Shown here in pieces: positions 40,658-48,199 of a stretch of 64,000 nucleotides of DNA. The DNA is from Dehalococcoidia bacterium (GTDB lineage Bacteria; Chloroflexota; Dehalococcoidia; Lucifugimonadales; UBA3495). The notes beneath the pieces were generated by a model. That model was not told the DNA's origin and ran no database searches. It was given only the letters and a program-made list of their open reading frames with translations. The DNA lies in assembly GCA_022827095.1 (NCBI GenBank), contig JAJDTP010000021.1, positions 62,001 through 126,000 on the forward strand, in the 5' to 3' direction. The stretch's first letter is position 1, and each line of letters opens with the position of its first letter. The position numbers and the translations under genes are program-made.

Positions 40658-41041
40658 ATGCTCTACGAAGTAGAAGTAGTCGCCGACGGCAACAGCCCCA
40701 TGGACCTCAACCGGGTCTTTGATCTGCTGACCGACCCCCGTCCCATCATCCGCGTCCTCGCTCCGGACCCCATGGGTGAGGATGTCTGGTGCGACGTGGT
40801 CGGATGGGAGAACGGCGAGCCGTGCTCCGCCATGGCCGCGCTGTCCGAGGACTCGGGTGAAGGCGTCATCATGCTGGTCTACGGCGGCGAGGACGGCATC
40901 CGACTGCGCCCTGCCGACCAAGCAGACGACTGGGATGTCGGTTCCGGCTCCCAATGGGGCGAACCCTGCCTCATGCTGGGCAGCGAAGTTCGTATCGAGT
41001 ACGTCCCGGCGGAGTGGGACTACTCCCAGCACCCCCACTGA
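40658..41041 (+). CDS. Hypothetical acidic protein
   Basis: A 127-residue acidic protein with no membrane segment or known motif. It has segments such as MLYEVEVVADGNSPMDLNRVFDLLTDP and GVIMLVYGGEDGIRL that look like mixed alpha/beta structure. It lies between the divergent M16 gene and the convergent pentapeptide-TIR gene. The start has no strong ribosome binding site. Confidence 0.6.
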   Translation: MLYEVEVVADGNSPMDLNRVFDLLTDPRPIIRVLAPDPMGEDVWCDVVGWENGEPCSAMAALSEDSGEGVIMLVYGGEDGIRLRPADQADDWDVGSGSQWGEPCLMLGSEVRIEYVPAEWDYSQHPH

Positions 41042-41053
41042 CGCCATGCCGTT

Positions 41054-42337
41054 TTACACAGCCGCAGCGTCAGACTCGTCGTCCTGCGGTTCGTCGTCCC
41101 AGGTATCCGGCTGCGCCTTGATTTCTGCGGTCAGAGTGGCCAACACGCCCGGCAGGTCGCGCCGGTAGCCACCCGCGCGGTCCTTGCGTGGCCTCAACCG
41201 GGCCGTCGGGCCGCCATTTAGCTGGCGATACAGTTCGTCGGTGTCATTTTCCAGGCATTCGTCCATCGCCAAGGCCACCACGTAAGAGCGGCGAGCTGCC
41301 GAAGTCGCTTGGCGCTGCATGATCTCCTGGTACAGCCTCCAGCAGGCGGGGCTTTCCAGGGCGTCCCGAGAGCAGAGCAATGCCACCCGGTCGAAGTCCC
41401 GGAAACGGCTCATCGGCGGGATCACCGAGGTGTTGTACGCCGCCTCCTCATCGTCTGCCAGCAGGCTCCAGCACTGCAATCCCATCGATCTCAGTTCGGT
41501 TTCCAGCCATCTGACGATGGTGTCGTCCGCCACGGAGCCGATCAGCAGCACCCGACGGTGCGGCGTCGCCTGATTGCCCAATCTGGCCTGGCCTTCAATG
41601 AACTCCGGAGGCACTCCGGCCGGCCGCAGAAAGGACTCCGGAATGCCACCGTTGGAGCGCGCCAGCGTGTCTGCTCCGACGATGCTGGGGCCATCGTGGC
41701 GCAGCGTTTCCAGTCCCAACGCGCCGCTCAGGTCGCAGTCGGCGAACAGCGTCATGTCAAGCACGACCTCTTCCAGCAAGGTGCGGTCAAGACGGGTACG
41801 CACCAGGATCGCCCGGCGCAGATCGCAGCGAGTGAGATTCGCCACATCCAGACACGCCGCGCTCAGCTTGGCGCCGCTCAGGTTGGCGTCCGTGAGGTCC
41901 GCCATGGTCAGATCGGCTTCGGTCAGGTCCGCCCCGGCCAGGTTCGCGCCGACCAGCGTCGCAAACGCAATGTCGCAGTTTGAGAGGTCGGCGCCCCTCA
42001 GGTCCGCGTTCTCGAGATTACTGCCCCGCAGGTCCGAACGGAGAAACGAAGCTTCGGCCGCCTGGCACTCCGCGAAATTCGCCCGGTTCAGGTTGCAGCG
42101 GGTCAAGAAAGCCCCGCGCAGACGAGCGCCGCCGAAGTTGGCATGCCGCAGGTCGGCCGAAGTCAGGTCAATCTGCGTCAGGTCGTCGAACCCCAGGTCC
42201 ACCCCGGGCATCTTGATCCCGCTGAGGTAAGCGCCTGACAGATCGAGACGCGGGCGGCTTTGAAACTCACGCGCCCGCCAGCGCGCTATGGCAAAGGTTC
42301 GCCTTTTGGCAACAGCAACGTGCTCAGGGTTCGCCAA
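41054..42337 (-). CDS. Pentapeptide-repeat/TIR-like fusion protein
   Basis: A 427-residue protein. Residues about 30-225 are a run of A(D/N)LxxADL-type pentapeptide repeats, which fold as a right-handed quadrilateral beta-helix. After a short linker, residues about 265-400 resemble a TIR domain: RRVLLIGSVADDTIVRWLETELRSMGLQCW, then DRVALLCSRDALESPACWRLYQE, where TIR NADases usually have their catalytic Glu. The Trp-to-Glu spacing is one residue longer than in classic TIRs, so catalytic activity is uncertain. Pentapeptide-TIR fusions are known mainly in cyanobacteria; the function is open, but TIR points to NAD cleavage, signalling or defence. Confidence 0.75.
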   Translation of the reverse strand: MANPEHVAVAKRRTFAIARWRAREFQSRPRLDLSGAYLSGIKMPGVDLGFDDLTQIDLTSADLRHANFGGARLRGAFLTRCNLNRANFAECQAAEASFLRSDLRGSNLENADLRGADLSNCDIAFATLVGANLAGADLTEADLTMADLTDANLSGAKLSAACLDVANLTRCDLRRAILVRTRLDRTLLEEVVLDMTLFADCDLSGALGLETLRHDGPSIVGADTLARSNGGIPESFLRPAGVPPEFIEGQARLGNQATPHRRVLLIGSVADDTIVRWLETELRSMGLQCWSLLADDEEAAYNTSVIPPMSRFRDFDRVALLCSRDALESPACWRLYQEIMQRQATSAARRSYVVALAMDECLENDTDELYRQLNGGPTARLRPRKDRAGGYRRDLPGVLATLTAEIKAQPDTWDDEPQDDESDAAAV

Positions 42338-42367: not shown

Positions 42368-43537
42368 TCAGTCGTCGCCGACCGGTAGGGCGGCCTCCCT
42401 CCCCGTGAAGGCCGGCATCACTTCGTCAGCAAAGATGGACAACTGATTTCTGAACTCGTCCCACGGCATGCCTTCCGGCCACTGCAGCACAATGTCCTCC
42501 AACCCCGGGTACTTCTCCTCGATTTCCCGCAGGAACGCGATGAAGTCGTCCGGGTTGCCGCAGAACCAGGCTTTCTGGTCGACGCCGTCTTCGATGCGGG
42601 GCGTTCGCGCCGGCGCTCCCGGCGTGCCCCACGGCCGTCCCTGTTCGTCCGTGTATCTGACGAACCCGAAGGGTGCGAACCACTTGTAGCGCTCGTCGTG
42701 GAAGGGCCGAACCTTTTCGATGGCCTCTTCGCGGCTGCCGGCGATGTAGAACCCGAATCCCAGCGCCATGTCGCCGCCCAGCGGAATGTCGCGGCCCGCC
42801 TCCGTCGCCGCGTCATGGTATTGGGTGATCATCTGCTCAGCGTACCGCTCGCCGGTCAGCGCCACCATCGCCTTGATGCCCCGCTCGGCGATGTAGTTCA
42901 GCGTCCGTCCGCTGGCGATGGGTTGCCAGATTTCCACGGGCTTGCTGACCGGCCGGGGCACCATGGTGATCTCTTTCAGGTCGTACCCGCGGTAGGGCAC
43001 CTGCGGCGGGATGGTGTAGTACTTGCCCGAGTGGCTCCACGAGTCTTCGTTGAACGCCTTCAGGATGACTTCCATCTGTTCGAGGAACAGCTCACGGTTC
43101 GCGTCGTTGTCGATCACCGGAGCGCCAAAGGTCTCGACCTCGCGCGCGTGGTAGCCGCGCCCGACTCCGAATATCATCCGGCCGCCCGTGAGAATGTCAG
43201 CCATGGCGAAGTCTTCGGCCACGCGCAGCGGATGCCACATGGGGATGATGTTGAACGCCTGCCCGAATTTGAGGTTCTTGGTCTGTCCCGCCAAGTGCAC
43301 TCCCATGAGGATCAGGTTCGGAATACACTCGTAGCCCTCGTGCTGGAAGTGGTGCTCCGCCATCCACATGCAGTAGAACCCGCGCTCGTCCATGTGCCGG
43401 GCCAGCGCTTCGGCGTGATCGTACGCCTGGACCAACTGTTCGTTGCTGTAACGGCGCTCGTCGGCCGGCGTGCCGTCTGCGCCCACGTTGTCCAGATCGA
43501 TCTGCCCCACGTACAGAACCGAAAACCGCTTAATCAT
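42368..43537 (-). CDS. Luciferase-like flavin-dependent monooxygenase
   Basis: A 389-residue TIM-barrel protein of the bacterial luciferase/LLM class. Signs are the N-terminal KRFSVLYVGQIDLDN, ALARHMDERGFYCMWMAEHHF, FNIIPMWHPLRVAEDFAMADILTGGRMIFGVGRGYHAREVETFG and the C-terminal LRE...YPGLEDIVLQWPEG. F420- or FMN-dependent members share these signals; the cofactor cannot be decided here. ATG 43537 is preferred over the longer frame; an extended -10 lies 37 bp upstream. Large numbers of these enzymes are typical of SAR202-like bacteria, from general knowledge. Confidence 0.9.
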   Translation of the reverse strand: MIKRFSVLYVGQIDLDNVGADGTPADERRYSNEQLVQAYDHAEALARHMDERGFYCMWMAEHHFQHEGYECIPNLILMGVHLAGQTKNLKFGQAFNIIPMWHPLRVAEDFAMADILTGGRMIFGVGRGYHAREVETFGAPVIDNDANRELFLEQMEVILKAFNEDSWSHSGKYYTIPPQVPYRGYDLKEITMVPRPVSKPVEIWQPIASGRTLNYIAERGIKAMVALTGERYAEQMITQYHDAATEAGRDIPLGGDMALGFGFYIAGSREEAIEKVRPFHDERYKWFAPFGFVRYTDEQGRPWGTPGAPARTPRIEDGVDQKAWFCGNPDDFIAFLREIEEKYPGLEDIVLQWPEGMPWDEFRNQLSIFADEVMPAFTGREAALPVGDD

Positions 43538-43573
43538 CCAATCAGTGCTCCGCTCGAATAAGTATCGCGCCGC

Positions 43574-43582
43574 ATTATAGCA
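43574..43582 (-). promoter_or_regulatory. Extended -10 promoter of the LLM monooxygenase gene
   Basis: TGCTATAAT on the minus strand, perfect extended -10, 37 bp ahead of the chosen start. Confidence 0.55.
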
Positions 43583-43644
43583 TGGGGCCTTGGGAGCGGA
43601 CGGCCGCAAAATGCTGCTTCCCGCGCTGGCAGGAAATCCGGTGT

Positions 43645-44470: not shown

Positions 44471-45286
44471 ATGATGAAGCCAACCAAGGCGCAGACGATA
44501 GATCGCATCCAGCGAGCGGTGGACGCGATACCAGCATTGATGTCAATGCCCCGATTTTCCCAAGAATTCACAAAATGGCACAGAAACACGAGGATAGCTA
44601 TAGCGCACACTTTCGGCGAAGACTCTCAACATATCAGAACATTCGACAGCATTGAGTATCGCCCAGGCATCGTCATAAATGGCATCCCTAACCAGCCATT
44701 CCAAGAAGCTTACCTTGGTGGTCTAGGGTATGCCAATGCTATCCTCGAATCGATGATTGAAGAAATCGAGGAGTATTGTCAGGACGATGTTCAGCCGCAA
44801 ACTGTGAACGGACAAGCGAGCGTGGACAAACCGATTGCCTCAAACGGAGTTTTCGTAGTTCACGGGCGGGATGAAGCAGCTAAGCACACACTTGCAAGGT
44901 ATCTTGGGGATCTGGGGTTGGAGCCCGTGATATTGCAGGAGCGGCCCAGCCAGGGCCGCACGATAATTGAGAAGTTTGAGGAATACGCCGAAACGGTCGG
45001 CTTCGCGGTGGTTCTGGGCACGCCGGATGACCTCGGCGGCCTTGCTGAAGAACCGGATAACCGACAACATCGAATGAGGCAGAACGTGGTCTTTGAGCTG
45101 GGATATTTTACCCGCGCACTTGGCCGTAACAAAGTATGCGTGTTGCTCAAAGACGTCGGCATTGAGAGACCGTCGGATTATGACGGCGTTATCTATATCC
45201 CCATGGATGACGGTGACGGTTGGAAATTGGCGCTGGGCAGGGAGTTGCGGGCCGCCGGTTTTACCATCGACCTGAACAGACTTTAG
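44471..45286 (+). CDS. CAP12/Pycsar-type TIR-domain protein
   Basis: A 271-residue protein. The N-terminal 125 residues are helical with no recognised domain. The C-terminal half is the nucleotide-binding TIR-like domain of CBASS/Pycsar effectors (Cap12 type): VFVVHGRDEAAKHTLARYLGDLGLEPVILQERPSQGRTIIEKFE, then FAVVLGTPDD and RQNVVFELGYFTRALGRNKVCVLL with a conserved Glu. Such domains hydrolyse NAD when activated. No cyclase gene is next to it, so it would be an orphan or work with an unrecognised partner. It ends three bases from the convergent R-M gene. Confidence 0.83.
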   Translation: MMKPTKAQTIDRIQRAVDAIPALMSMPRFSQEFTKWHRNTRIAIAHTFGEDSQHIRTFDSIEYRPGIVINGIPNQPFQEAYLGGLGYANAILESMIEEIEEYCQDDVQPQTVNGQASVDKPIASNGVFVVHGRDEAAKHTLARYLGDLGLEPVILQERPSQGRTIIEKFEEYAETVGFAVVLGTPDDLGGLAEEPDNRQHRMRQNVVFELGYFTRALGRNKVCVLLKDVGIERPSDYDGVIYIPMDDGDGWKLALGRELRAAGFTIDLNRL

Positions 45287-45289
45287 CAC

Positions 45290-48199
45290 CTACAACCGCC
45301 GGTTGCTCACCACCGGCTCCGAGGCCAGCAGGCGGCGCAGTCCGTCCAGGTTAGGCAGGCCCAGGATTTCCGACAGCCCGTCGTCCAGGCGGCGGCGAGC
45401 GGCGCATTCGGCCATCGCCGGCAAACGCTCGAATTCCTTCCCGGCAACGTCGTCAAACAACCGCGACAGCGCCTGCAAATGCTCAGGGTCGATGGCCCGC
45501 ACGTCCAGAACCGGCAGCTGTTCCAGATCGGCCTTTTTCATGCCAACCCAACTGCCTTCCGTGCTGGTGCGCTGCGCAAGCAGGGTCAACAAGCCGAGGC
45601 TAGAGTTCATCCACACGGCCAGTGCCTTTTCGTGAATAACCTCTTCAACCTTGACGGGCCACCAGACGTTGGACAACACTCTGGCATCAGTTCGGGTTGC
45701 GATTACTCTCGCAGTATTCAGCCGTAACCTTTCGGCGACAAGCAACCGGCCAGCTTGCAGCCATAGGTGTTCGCCATATCCCGGGCGCTGCCCTCCCCGG
45801 GGTGTGACCAATGGCGACAGATAGGTGTCCGGGGCGCACACTAAAGTCTTGCGCTGTTCGGTATCGTGCCCTTCCACCATTGGATAGGCGGTTTGAGCGG
45901 TAGTCCGCTCGAACCCATCGACCAGCCGCCGCCGGTCGGGGCCGACGTCACCGAGTTTGGCCAAGGGGCAGAGGAGAATGCGACCCACGGCTGACTCGCC
46001 GGGAACCCACACTTCGCCGTCGTCCAGAAGACGCAGGGCGCTGCGAGTCAGGTCGGCGCGCGCGAACTGCACGCCAGCCCACTTTTTGCCGATGAGTTTG
46101 GATTCGGGAATGGACACCAGTTCGCCAACGTGCCGGCCGTCAACTTCCACCAGCGCGGCGCCGGCCGCTTCCAGGTTGGCCGGTATGGTGTCGGCGATGG
46201 CCTGAGCGGTGCGGTGGGCGTCCAGCACGCCGTCGGGGTTTTGCCACAGGCTGACGAAAGTAGTGCGGTGTTCGCCTTCGCTGCCGTTTCCTGACGGCCG
46301 CCGCGTTGCGATGAGCAGAGCTTCGGACAGGTCAGTGCTGTCGGAGAAGTTCCAGCGGGCGGGATCGTGAGAAACCATCACTATGTCCAACTTGAAATCG
46401 CGCTCGATCAACGAGCGGGTCTGCTGCCAGGAGGGGCCGGTACAGACGGTGGCCGGCAGAACCAGGGCCAAACGGCCTTCACCGGGGCGCAGTTTGGGAG
46501 AAGCTGCGGCCACGAAGGCCGCGCCCAGGCCGGCGGTTGCTGTTGCTTGACGCGACCTGAGGCGGCGGGAAAGTTCATTTTGCAACTTGCGGCGGTCGGG
46601 GGCGGGCAGACTGCCGAACAGCAAATTGCCGCCCACGGAGCGGGTAAAGGGCGGGTTCATTATAGCCAGATCCAGGTCCGGCAGCGTGGCGAGTTCTTCG
46701 TGCTGGGCGCCTCTGGAACCGCCGCCATACACCCGCTCGGCATCGCGAACCGTCCGTCCGCTGACGCCCATGCCCGCGGGAGACAAAGCGAACTGGACTG
46801 CCGCTTGCGTTTCCCCCAGGAAGTCCAGGGAACCCAGAGATACGTCATCGCCATCGGCTCCCAGCGGCATGACGTAGAGGTTGATGCGGTCAAACTGGAT
46901 ATCAGGGTTCAGCATCGCCAGACTGGTGGCGGCGAAATGCACGGCGGAGAGCTGAACATCGTAGCCGTGCAGGGCCTGCTCCACCATCGCTTTGTGCAGG
47001 GCGTCGACGTTTCGGCCGCCGGACTCGGTATGGCGGCGTTCCGCTTCGCCGGCCACGGCCATCAGCAGTGTGCCGGTGCCGCAGGCAATGTCAGCCACGT
47101 TCAGAGAAGCCGGAAATTCATGGTCGCTCCAGTCAACGCCGGCCGGCCAGTCGTGGAACACCAGCCGGGTGAGCAGCGTTGCCGCCGGAACCGAGGTGTA
47201 ATAGGCTCCAGTGAATTTGGCGTCGGTGAGGAGAGTATGGAAAAGCCGGCCGGACAGGTCATGCCCTTCCAAGTGGCTGGTATCTTCCACCGCCTTGAGG
47301 AGCGGCTCCATTACCGGGCCATGCCATAGGTGCGGCCGGTCGGCATAGTCCAGGATGGTCAGCAGTCTCTTGGCCAGGTCAAACACCGGCACGTAGTCGA
47401 TGGTTTCGCAGATGTCATCCCAAACCTTCAGAAGCCCAGGGACTCCTCCGTCTCGCCACGTTTCGGCAACAGTGGGTACGACATCGTTGGTGGATGCGAG
47501 GCGCAAATGGAAGGCCAGCGCATTGAAGATGACGAGGCAGCCGATGCGTAGAGCCTTGGCGCGATCAGTTTCCCGGTCGGTCTGGGCGATGGCCTCTCTG
47601 ACCAGGCGAGCCAGCCGAGCATAAGTGGCAAGTTTTGTCGCCGATTGTTCGATGGCGTGCTCGATTACGGCGGCGGCGGCCACAACGCGGTCGGTGCCCT
47701 CCAGTTCCAACGGCAACACGCGCAACTGGTCGGCAATGTGCGCGGGAGAGCCGAAGCGGGAACGACGTTCTGCGGTCGGTTCGCCTCTGGAGCCGTGGAG
47801 CCACCATTCGAGGTCGCCGGCATTCTCCAGCCCTTCACGGGTATCGTCCAGGTATTTCAGCCCTTCGGGGTAAAGGACACCGATAACCCCCAGTGCGTCG
47901 GGGAACTGCTGCAGGCGAGTGTCCAGCTGACTTTCCAACTGGCTGACGGAATCTTCCCACTTGCATTCCAGCAGCACCGTGTCGCCGGTCTTCAGGTCAA
48001 CACGGACGTCAGGGGTTGAATTGCGGTTGCGCCGTTCGGCCCGGGCCGATATGCCCTGGTCGCGGAGCAGTTGGGCAAGCAGCGTATTGACCGCTTCCTC
48101 ACGGATAGTGTCCCGGCGCGCCGGGCCGGGTGAGGCGGTATTCTCATTTCGTCGTGGTCTTGGCAAAGCTAGTCTTCCTCGCGGGGTCGGGGCAATCAT
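45290..48199 (-). CDS. Single-chain restriction-modification enzyme (type IIG-like N6-adenine MTase)
   Basis: A 969-residue enzyme. At the N-terminus a PD-(D/E)xK nuclease is visible: PD at residues 63-64 and ECK at 78-80. In the middle, MTase motif I (VADIACGTGTLLM, 368-380) and motif IV NPPF (515-518) mark an amino-methyltransferase; the catalytic core spans about 320-620. The C-terminal 300 residues probably form the target-recognition domain. Together it would cut and methylate at the same site. No separate specificity, restriction or translocase gene is adjacent. The start is uncertain: residues 1-30 have no homology and the ATG lies in a region that also resembles a -10 box. Confidence 0.85.
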   Translation of the reverse strand: MIAPTPRGRLALPRPRRNENTASPGPARRDTIREEAVNTLLAQLLRDQGISARAERRNRNSTPDVRVDLKTGDTVLLECKWEDSVSQLESQLDTRLQQFPDALGVIGVLYPEGLKYLDDTREGLENAGDLEWWLHGSRGEPTAERRSRFGSPAHIADQLRVLPLELEGTDRVVAAAAVIEHAIEQSATKLATYARLARLVREAIAQTDRETDRAKALRIGCLVIFNALAFHLRLASTNDVVPTVAETWRDGGVPGLLKVWDDICETIDYVPVFDLAKRLLTILDYADRPHLWHGPVMEPLLKAVEDTSHLEGHDLSGRLFHTLLTDAKFTGAYYTSVPAATLLTRLVFHDWPAGVDWSDHEFPASLNVADIACGTGTLLMAVAGEAERRHTESGGRNVDALHKAMVEQALHGYDVQLSAVHFAATSLAMLNPDIQFDRINLYVMPLGADGDDVSLGSLDFLGETQAAVQFALSPAGMGVSGRTVRDAERVYGGGSRGAQHEELATLPDLDLAIMNPPFTRSVGGNLLFGSLPAPDRRKLQNELSRRLRSRQATATAGLGAAFVAAASPKLRPGEGRLALVLPATVCTGPSWQQTRSLIERDFKLDIVMVSHDPARWNFSDSTDLSEALLIATRRPSGNGSEGEHRTTFVSLWQNPDGVLDAHRTAQAIADTIPANLEAAGAALVEVDGRHVGELVSIPESKLIGKKWAGVQFARADLTRSALRLLDDGEVWVPGESAVGRILLCPLAKLGDVGPDRRRLVDGFERTTAQTAYPMVEGHDTEQRKTLVCAPDTYLSPLVTPRGGQRPGYGEHLWLQAGRLLVAERLRLNTARVIATRTDARVLSNVWWPVKVEEVIHEKALAVWMNSSLGLLTLLAQRTSTEGSWVGMKKADLEQLPVLDVRAIDPEHLQALSRLFDDVAGKEFERLPAMAECAARRRLDDGLSEILGLPNLDGLRRLLASEPVVSNRRL

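What the first reader, a model, noticed from the sequence alone, without database searches (positions are those of the whole stretch)
41054..42337. Pentapeptide-repeat beta-helix fused to a TIR-like domain
About 195 residues of A(D/N)LxxADL repeats join a TIR-like domain. In TIR effectors another domain senses the threat; a DNA-mimicking pentapeptide helix as sensor is unusual. The Trp-to-Glu spacing at the presumed catalytic site is one residue longer than in classic NADases.
Basis: partly seen in the sequence, partly recalled or inferred. Interest (0 to 1): 0.7.

Follow-up and report, generated by a model that had tools for sequence, protein, structure and literature searches.

The report
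Core pentapeptide protein with inactive TIR

Summary
The fusion is real. ORF 41054-42337 (-) encodes 427 aa: an N-terminal helix pair, a pentapeptide beta-helix (about 31-205), a conserved linker and a C-terminal TIR domain (about 259-405). Structure prediction (pLDDT 87; TIR alone 80), structure comparison (best hits TIR, Z 13.7) and profiles (TIR_2 in 33/37 relatives) agree on TIR.

The functional reading fails. In 37 orthologues across the family no acidic residue stands at the Glu position; a DDE motif after strand B is conserved instead. A second paralogue carries Asp there (31/31) and has lost the Trp. Most same-architecture proteins read elsewhere in Chloroflexota keep both residues and are patchy.

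It is not a mobile defence gene: 49 of 50 genomes of this SAR202 (Chloroflexota) family have it, usually as two ancient paralogues, syntenic between genera and under purifying selection; an accessory TIR family with a member 2 kb away occurs in 13 of 50. Most likely a domesticated pseudo-enzyme TIR acting as scaffold or adaptor; the partner is unknown. New variant of a known kind.

The parts
41054..42337 (-). Paralogue A: pentapeptide-TIR pseudo-enzyme gene, 427 aa, TTG start (TTG in 17 of 18 A proteins checked, this one included)
42269..42337 (-). N-terminal helix pair (residues 1-23), signature 'ANxEH...ARWR', shared with relatives of this architecture (MANxEHLxxxKQGVxxWNxWR)
41723..42247 (-). 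Pentapeptide-repeat beta-helix (residues 31-205), about 35 pentads, nearly 9 coils
41564..41722 (-). Conserved capping linker (residues 206-258): GLExxRHxGPSxxGxDTLxRSxGxxPxxFLRxAGVP
41123..41563 (-). TIR-fold domain (residues 259-405)
41447..41455 (-). Asp295-Asp296-Glu297 (DDE) after strand B, start of the BB loop: DDE in 36 and GDE in 1 of 37 A orthologues, absent from B and from canonical relatives
41324..41347 (-).
42368..43609 (-). LLM-class (luciferase-like) flavin oxidoreductase, ends 30 bp upstream of the gene; an orthologue (70-97% identical) lies directly upstream in the other loci, 15 of 17 loci in all
40658..41041 (+). Small conserved protein of unknown function (127 aa), convergent with the gene; recurrent neighbour in several genera

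Best explanation
This is a domesticated, catalytically inactive TIR protein. An ancestral pentapeptide-linker-TIR protein, of a kind that elsewhere in Chloroflexota mostly keeps the canonical NADase residues and is scattered like an accessory gene, became fixed in this SAR202 family and exists there as two paralogues: A (this gene; catalytic Glu lost, DDE motif gained) and B (catalytic Glu replaced by Asp, BB-loop insertion). Proposed working: the stiff pentapeptide rod, the part with the lowest dN/dS, binds a specific partner protein; the conserved linker caps it and holds the TIR domain; the TIR domain works by TIR-TIR assembly (homotypic, or A with B) as a scaffold or regulator and not as an enzyme. 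Shown here: architecture, fold, loss of catalytic residues, near-universality, synteny, purifying selection. Inferred: lack of enzymatic activity, TIR-TIR assembly, and the existence of a partner.
For: TIR fold: TIR-only model pLDDT 80, top rows are TIR domains (Cat1 Z 13.7, SPARTA 13.6, RPS4/RRS1 13.5, RUN1 13.5); Foldseek best match TIR-STING 8.8e-05; TIR_2 in 33/37 members. Loss of active site: at the catalytic-Glu column A has no Glu or Asp in 37 (16 Tyr, 13 Leu), B has Asp in 31/31, the five canonical relatives have Glu; at the catalytic-Trp column 0/37, 0/31 and 5/5 Trp. The profile aligns the same columns, without gaps, to the Trp and Glu of AbTir and TIR-STING. New conserved site: DDE 36/37. 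Near-core: 49/50 family genomes, 18/18 of the good ones, 17/17 genera, usually two copies, against 13/50 for the CAP12 TIR family and scattered presence in the rest of the phylum. Synteny of A across genera, and of B even with another family (G038). A, B and canonical proteins each form one supported group. dN/dS 0.03 in the pentapeptide part and 0.08 in the TIR part among close orthologues.
Against: Absence of the Glu makes NADase activity unlikely but nothing was assayed. A scaffold role and a partner are not shown by any data here. An acidic helix residue one turn further on (338) is present in 16 of 37 orthologues. Near-universality within one family does not by itself exclude a fixed defence role. 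Loss of the residues is also seen in some scattered relatives outside the family (L075, L076).
Confidence: 0.55

Rival explanations
1. The altered TIR pocket still binds a nucleotide (NAD or an ADP-ribose-type signal) without cutting it, so the protein is a ligand sensor; the DDE motif in A and the Asp and loop insertion in B shape the new pocket.
For: Residues at the start of the BB loop are among the best conserved of the A domain (DDE 36/37) and of the B domain (ARGxxLVxRxSxS), beside the old active site; the general TIR residues D271, W290, D316 and D359 are kept.
Against: No ligand evidence; the active-site Trp is gone in all 37 A and 31 B proteins.
Confidence: 0.2
2. Partner and regulator of the flavin-dependent (LLM) oxidoreductase encoded 30 bp upstream: the two are co-expressed and the pentapeptide rod binds the enzyme.
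For: Same strand, 30-bp gap, orthologous LLM gene directly upstream in 15 of 17 loci from five genera. SAR202 genomes are reported to carry expanded paralogous families of oxidative enzymes (PMC5395668, PMC6946804; abstracts).
Against: The whole block is syntenic, so adjacency may only reflect slow rearrangement; in two genera (L106, L118) A lies elsewhere without it; paralogue B has quite other neighbours (carbamoyltransferase, Der, PlsY, GpsA).
Confidence: 0.12
3. One reading: an anti-phage TIR NADase effector with the pentapeptide helix as sensor.
For: TIR fold; a CAP12-type TIR gene and a methyltransferase-like gene lie within 6 kb; relatives with intact residues exist.
Against: Catalytic Glu missing in all orthologues; near-core, syntenic, vertical inheritance; no PADLOC model matches; the defence-like neighbours are variable and do not travel with A.
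Confidence: 0.06
4. Topoisomerase-binding DNA mimic of the MfpA/Qnr type with an accessory TIR domain.
For: The beta-helix matches MfpA, Qnr, AlbG and HetL structures.
Against: Such matches are expected of any pentapeptide protein; Qnr/MfpA NCBIfam models score far under cut-off; the charge of the rod is not conserved (-10 to -2).
Confidence: 0.05

Closest known systems
Canonical pentapeptide-linker-TIR proteins of other Chloroflexota (L068, L071, L072, L073, L074; also L157 in the same family; the linker-TIR half also on a Skermanella plasmid, L098)
   Same: Whole architecture: MANxEHL N-terminus, pentapeptide helix, the same linker, TIR domain
   Different: They keep Trp and Glu of the active site and are patchy; A and B have lost them and are near-universal in the family
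Bacterial TIR NADases (AbTir, PDB 7uxu and 8g83; TIR protein 3h16)
   Same: TIR fold; the profile aligns over the domain
   Different: The catalytic Glu (E208 in AbTir, PMC10022894) aligns with Leu335; the Trp with Ala331
Thoeris ThsB TIR
   Same: TIR fold; PF08937 matched by 5 of 37 members
   Different: The window protein itself does not match PF08937; the catalytic Glu needed by ThsB (E85, PMC10022894) is absent; neighbours are unrelated
MAL, MyD88 and TRIF adaptor TIRs
   Same: TIR domains that act by assembly (own knowledge); they appear among the structure matches
   Different: Animal adaptors without a pentapeptide helix; an analogy of working only
MfpA, Qnr and HetL pentapeptide proteins
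   Same: Beta-helix fold of the N-terminal part
   Different: No TIR domain; family models far under cut-off

Membership tests
TIR domain (fold superfamily) | Five-strand flavodoxin-like beta-alpha TIR fold | tested here: met
   TIR-only model, Z 13.7 to about 12 against TIR structures; receiver domains from 11.5 down
TIR domain (fold superfamily) | Profile match to TIR models | tested here: met
   TIR_2 29.8 bits over cut-off 28 for the domain alone; 33/37 members
TIR NADase | Catalytic Glu on the helix after strand C | tested here: not met
   Leu335 at that column; 0/37 Glu or Asp among A orthologues; column aligned to the AbTir Glu
TIR NADase | Conserved Trp four residues before the Glu | tested here: not met
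   Ala331; 0/37 Trp
TIR NADase | NAD(+) cleavage | not testable with these tools
   needs an enzyme assay
Pentapeptide repeat protein | Tandem A(D/N)LXX repeats forming a quadrilateral beta-helix | tested here: met
   PF00805 4.1e-36; beta-helix at pLDDT 97; HetL and MfpA matches
Qnr/MfpA gyrase-protection proteins | Match to family models at cut-off | tested here: not met
   QnrC 54 of 500 bits, MfpA 32 of 360 bits
Known anti-phage defence system | Match to PADLOC models | tested here: not met
   no model at E 0.1
Known anti-phage defence system | Patchy distribution and horizontal spread | tested here: not met
   49/50 genomes, syntenic, A monophyletic 100/100; control CAP12 TIR 13/50
Thoeris ThsB | ThsA-type effector gene next to it | tested here: not met
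   direct neighbours are an LLM oxidoreductase and a 127-aa protein without Pfam match

The most novel reading that the evidence does not exclude
A bacterial family has taken an immune-type pentapeptide-TIR protein, kept it in two copies, lost the active site in both and made them near-core cellular components, with a new conserved acidic (DDE) site in one and an Asp-plus-loop site in the other; the TIR pair forms a non-enzymatic signalling or structural assembly (or a new ligand-binding site) that serves ordinary physiology.
Probability: 0.3. Interest if true: 0.7.

Novelty: new variant of a known kind. Interest (0 to 1): 0.45.

Why it matters
Bacterial TIR domains are mostly discussed as NADases of defence systems, whereas animal adaptor TIRs act by assembly. 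A conserved pair of TIR proteins without the active site, core to a large marine and sponge-associated lineage, would be a bacterial case of TIR function without catalysis, with canonical pentapeptide-TIR proteins in the same phylum as a natural comparison. It also warns against reading every TIR gene near restriction-type genes as a defence effector.

Tried and rejected
Plasmid search with the full protein returned only pentapeptide matches among the rows listed, so later searches used linker plus TIR. phmmer of the window TIR alone against the PDB found nothing relevant; the family profile was needed. The full-length fold search was filled by pentapeptide structures, so the TIR domain was predicted alone. 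The first alignment script mis-oriented minus-strand loci and was redone. Literature searches in the held library found no paper on this architecture; most subscription papers are not covered. The idea of a decayed pseudogene was rejected by dN/dS. The idea of a receiver-like domain was rejected because TIR rows stand above receiver rows and profiles hit TIR.

Full report
Observation. The ORF at 41054-42337 (minus) encodes 427 aa from a TTG start. Pfam finds Pentapeptide repeats (4.1e-36) and TIR_2 at 27.1 bits against a cut-off of 28; the domain on its own scores 29.8, over the cut-off. The pentad register is clean over residues 31-205. AlphaFold2 with 37 sequences gives mean pLDDT 86.6: a helix pair, a beta-helix at pLDDT about 97, a helical cap and a C-terminal beta-alpha domain. 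The window lies in a Chloroflexota genome; its near relatives are titled SAR202 cluster, Dehalococcoidia or Chloroflexota MAGs.

Is it a TIR? Yes. The TIR-only model (pLDDT 80) finds TIR-STING, MAL, SPARTA and Cat1 with Foldseek, and TIR domains head the structural realignment (Z 13.7 to about 12, receiver domains from 11.5 down). The family profile finds TIR-STING, AbTir, another bacterial TIR protein and Toll-related TIRs in the PDB.

Active site. The alignment of A with canonical relatives of identical architecture is gap-free from the conserved Asp316 through strand C into the helix. In canonical proteins the Trp stands two, and the Glu six, residues after the conserved Ser (SAWVQKE in L068). 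Across 37 A orthologues the Glu column holds Tyr (16), Leu (13), Phe (3), Ser (2), Ile, Asn and one unread residue, never Glu or Asp; Trp is never at the Trp column. Trp333 is present in 14 and Glu338 in 15 of 37, so neither is a family feature. The PDB profile alignment independently places Trp and Glu of AbTir and TIR-STING on the same two columns. The catalytic role of that Glu is established for AbTir, ThsB and others (PMC10022894; see also PMC7075850). Paralogue B has Asp at the Glu column in 31/31 and no Trp. A has DDE (295-297) right after strand B (36/37, one GDE); B has a conserved ARGxxLVxRxSxS loop. Loss of activity is an inference from these residues, not an assay.

Distribution. 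In the family, 49 of 50 genomes have a match, 18/18 of the good ones and 17/17 genera, most with exactly two copies. As a control, the CAP12/PCTIR TIR family, of which one member sits 2 kb away in the window, is found in 13 of 50. Outside the family the architecture is rare and scattered in the phylum. Of the eight such proteins read, five keep both residues (L068, L071, L072, L073, L074), L069 keeps the Glu without the Trp, and L075 and L076 have lost both, so loss is not unique to this family, but fixation is. Single proteins of other families in the same order (G038, G055) keep the Glu but not the Trp, which looks like an intermediate state. One family genome (G031) holds a canonical extra copy (L157).

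Inheritance. A, B and canonical proteins are separate supported groups (long branches are present, so the branching order between groups is not claimed). A sits directly downstream of an orthologous LLM flavin oxidoreductase in 15 of 17 loci from five genera, and next to a small protein in several. B is syntenic with housekeeping genes (a carbamoyltransferase, Der, PlsY, GpsA; named here from their sequences, not searched) in several genera and in G038 of another family. dN/dS is 0.03 (pentapeptide) and 0.08 (TIR) among close, 0.12 and 0.17 among more distant genus members; dS is high, so these ratios are approximate.

Mechanism. Shown: a rigid rod, a conserved cap, a TIR without its active site but with new conserved sites, strong retention. 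Inferred: the rod binds a partner, the TIR acts by assembly, perhaps A with B. The alternatives of a ligand sensor and of a regulator of the neighbouring oxidoreductase remain open; the NADase-effector reading is unlikely. The DNA-mimic idea is weak because the charge of the rod is not conserved and Qnr/MfpA models score far under cut-off.

Novelty. No paper in the held library describes this architecture; related surveys mention pentapeptide repeats and TIRs as separate parts of conflict systems (PMC7159879, PMC8195603, PMC10853773). TIR folds without NADase activity are known from animal adaptors (own knowledge). I rate it a new variant of a known kind, of moderate interest.

Noticed in passing
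window 44471-45286 (+): CAP12/Pycsar-type TIR gene (PF10137 6.5e-36; PADLOC candidate PDC-S35 7e-80); the family is present in 13 of 50 genomes: a likely true accessory defence TIR, independent of the finding.
   Followed up: partly
window 45290-48199 (-): 969-aa protein with weak type II / IIG restriction-methyltransferase matches (PADLOC 1e-7), next to the CAP12 TIR gene.
   Followed up: no
L002 (G000:C24:91632-92897): Paralogue B of the same genome: pentapeptide-TIR with Asp in place of the catalytic Glu and an ARGxxLVxRxSxS loop insertion.
   Followed up: yes
window 42335-42337 and orthologues: A genes start with TTG in 17 of 18 checked (one GTG), across genera, while B starts with ATG in 6 of 6: a conserved weak start codon.
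   Followed up: partly
L098 1835-5591 (Skermanella plasmid pSR-5): A linker-TIR gene 45% identical to L068 lies behind two IS256 transposase genes and a pentapeptide gene, as if a canonical fusion gene was split by insertion.
   Followed up: no
L157 (G031:C37): A canonical (Trp and Glu intact) pentapeptide-TIR third copy in a genome of the same family.
   Followed up: partly
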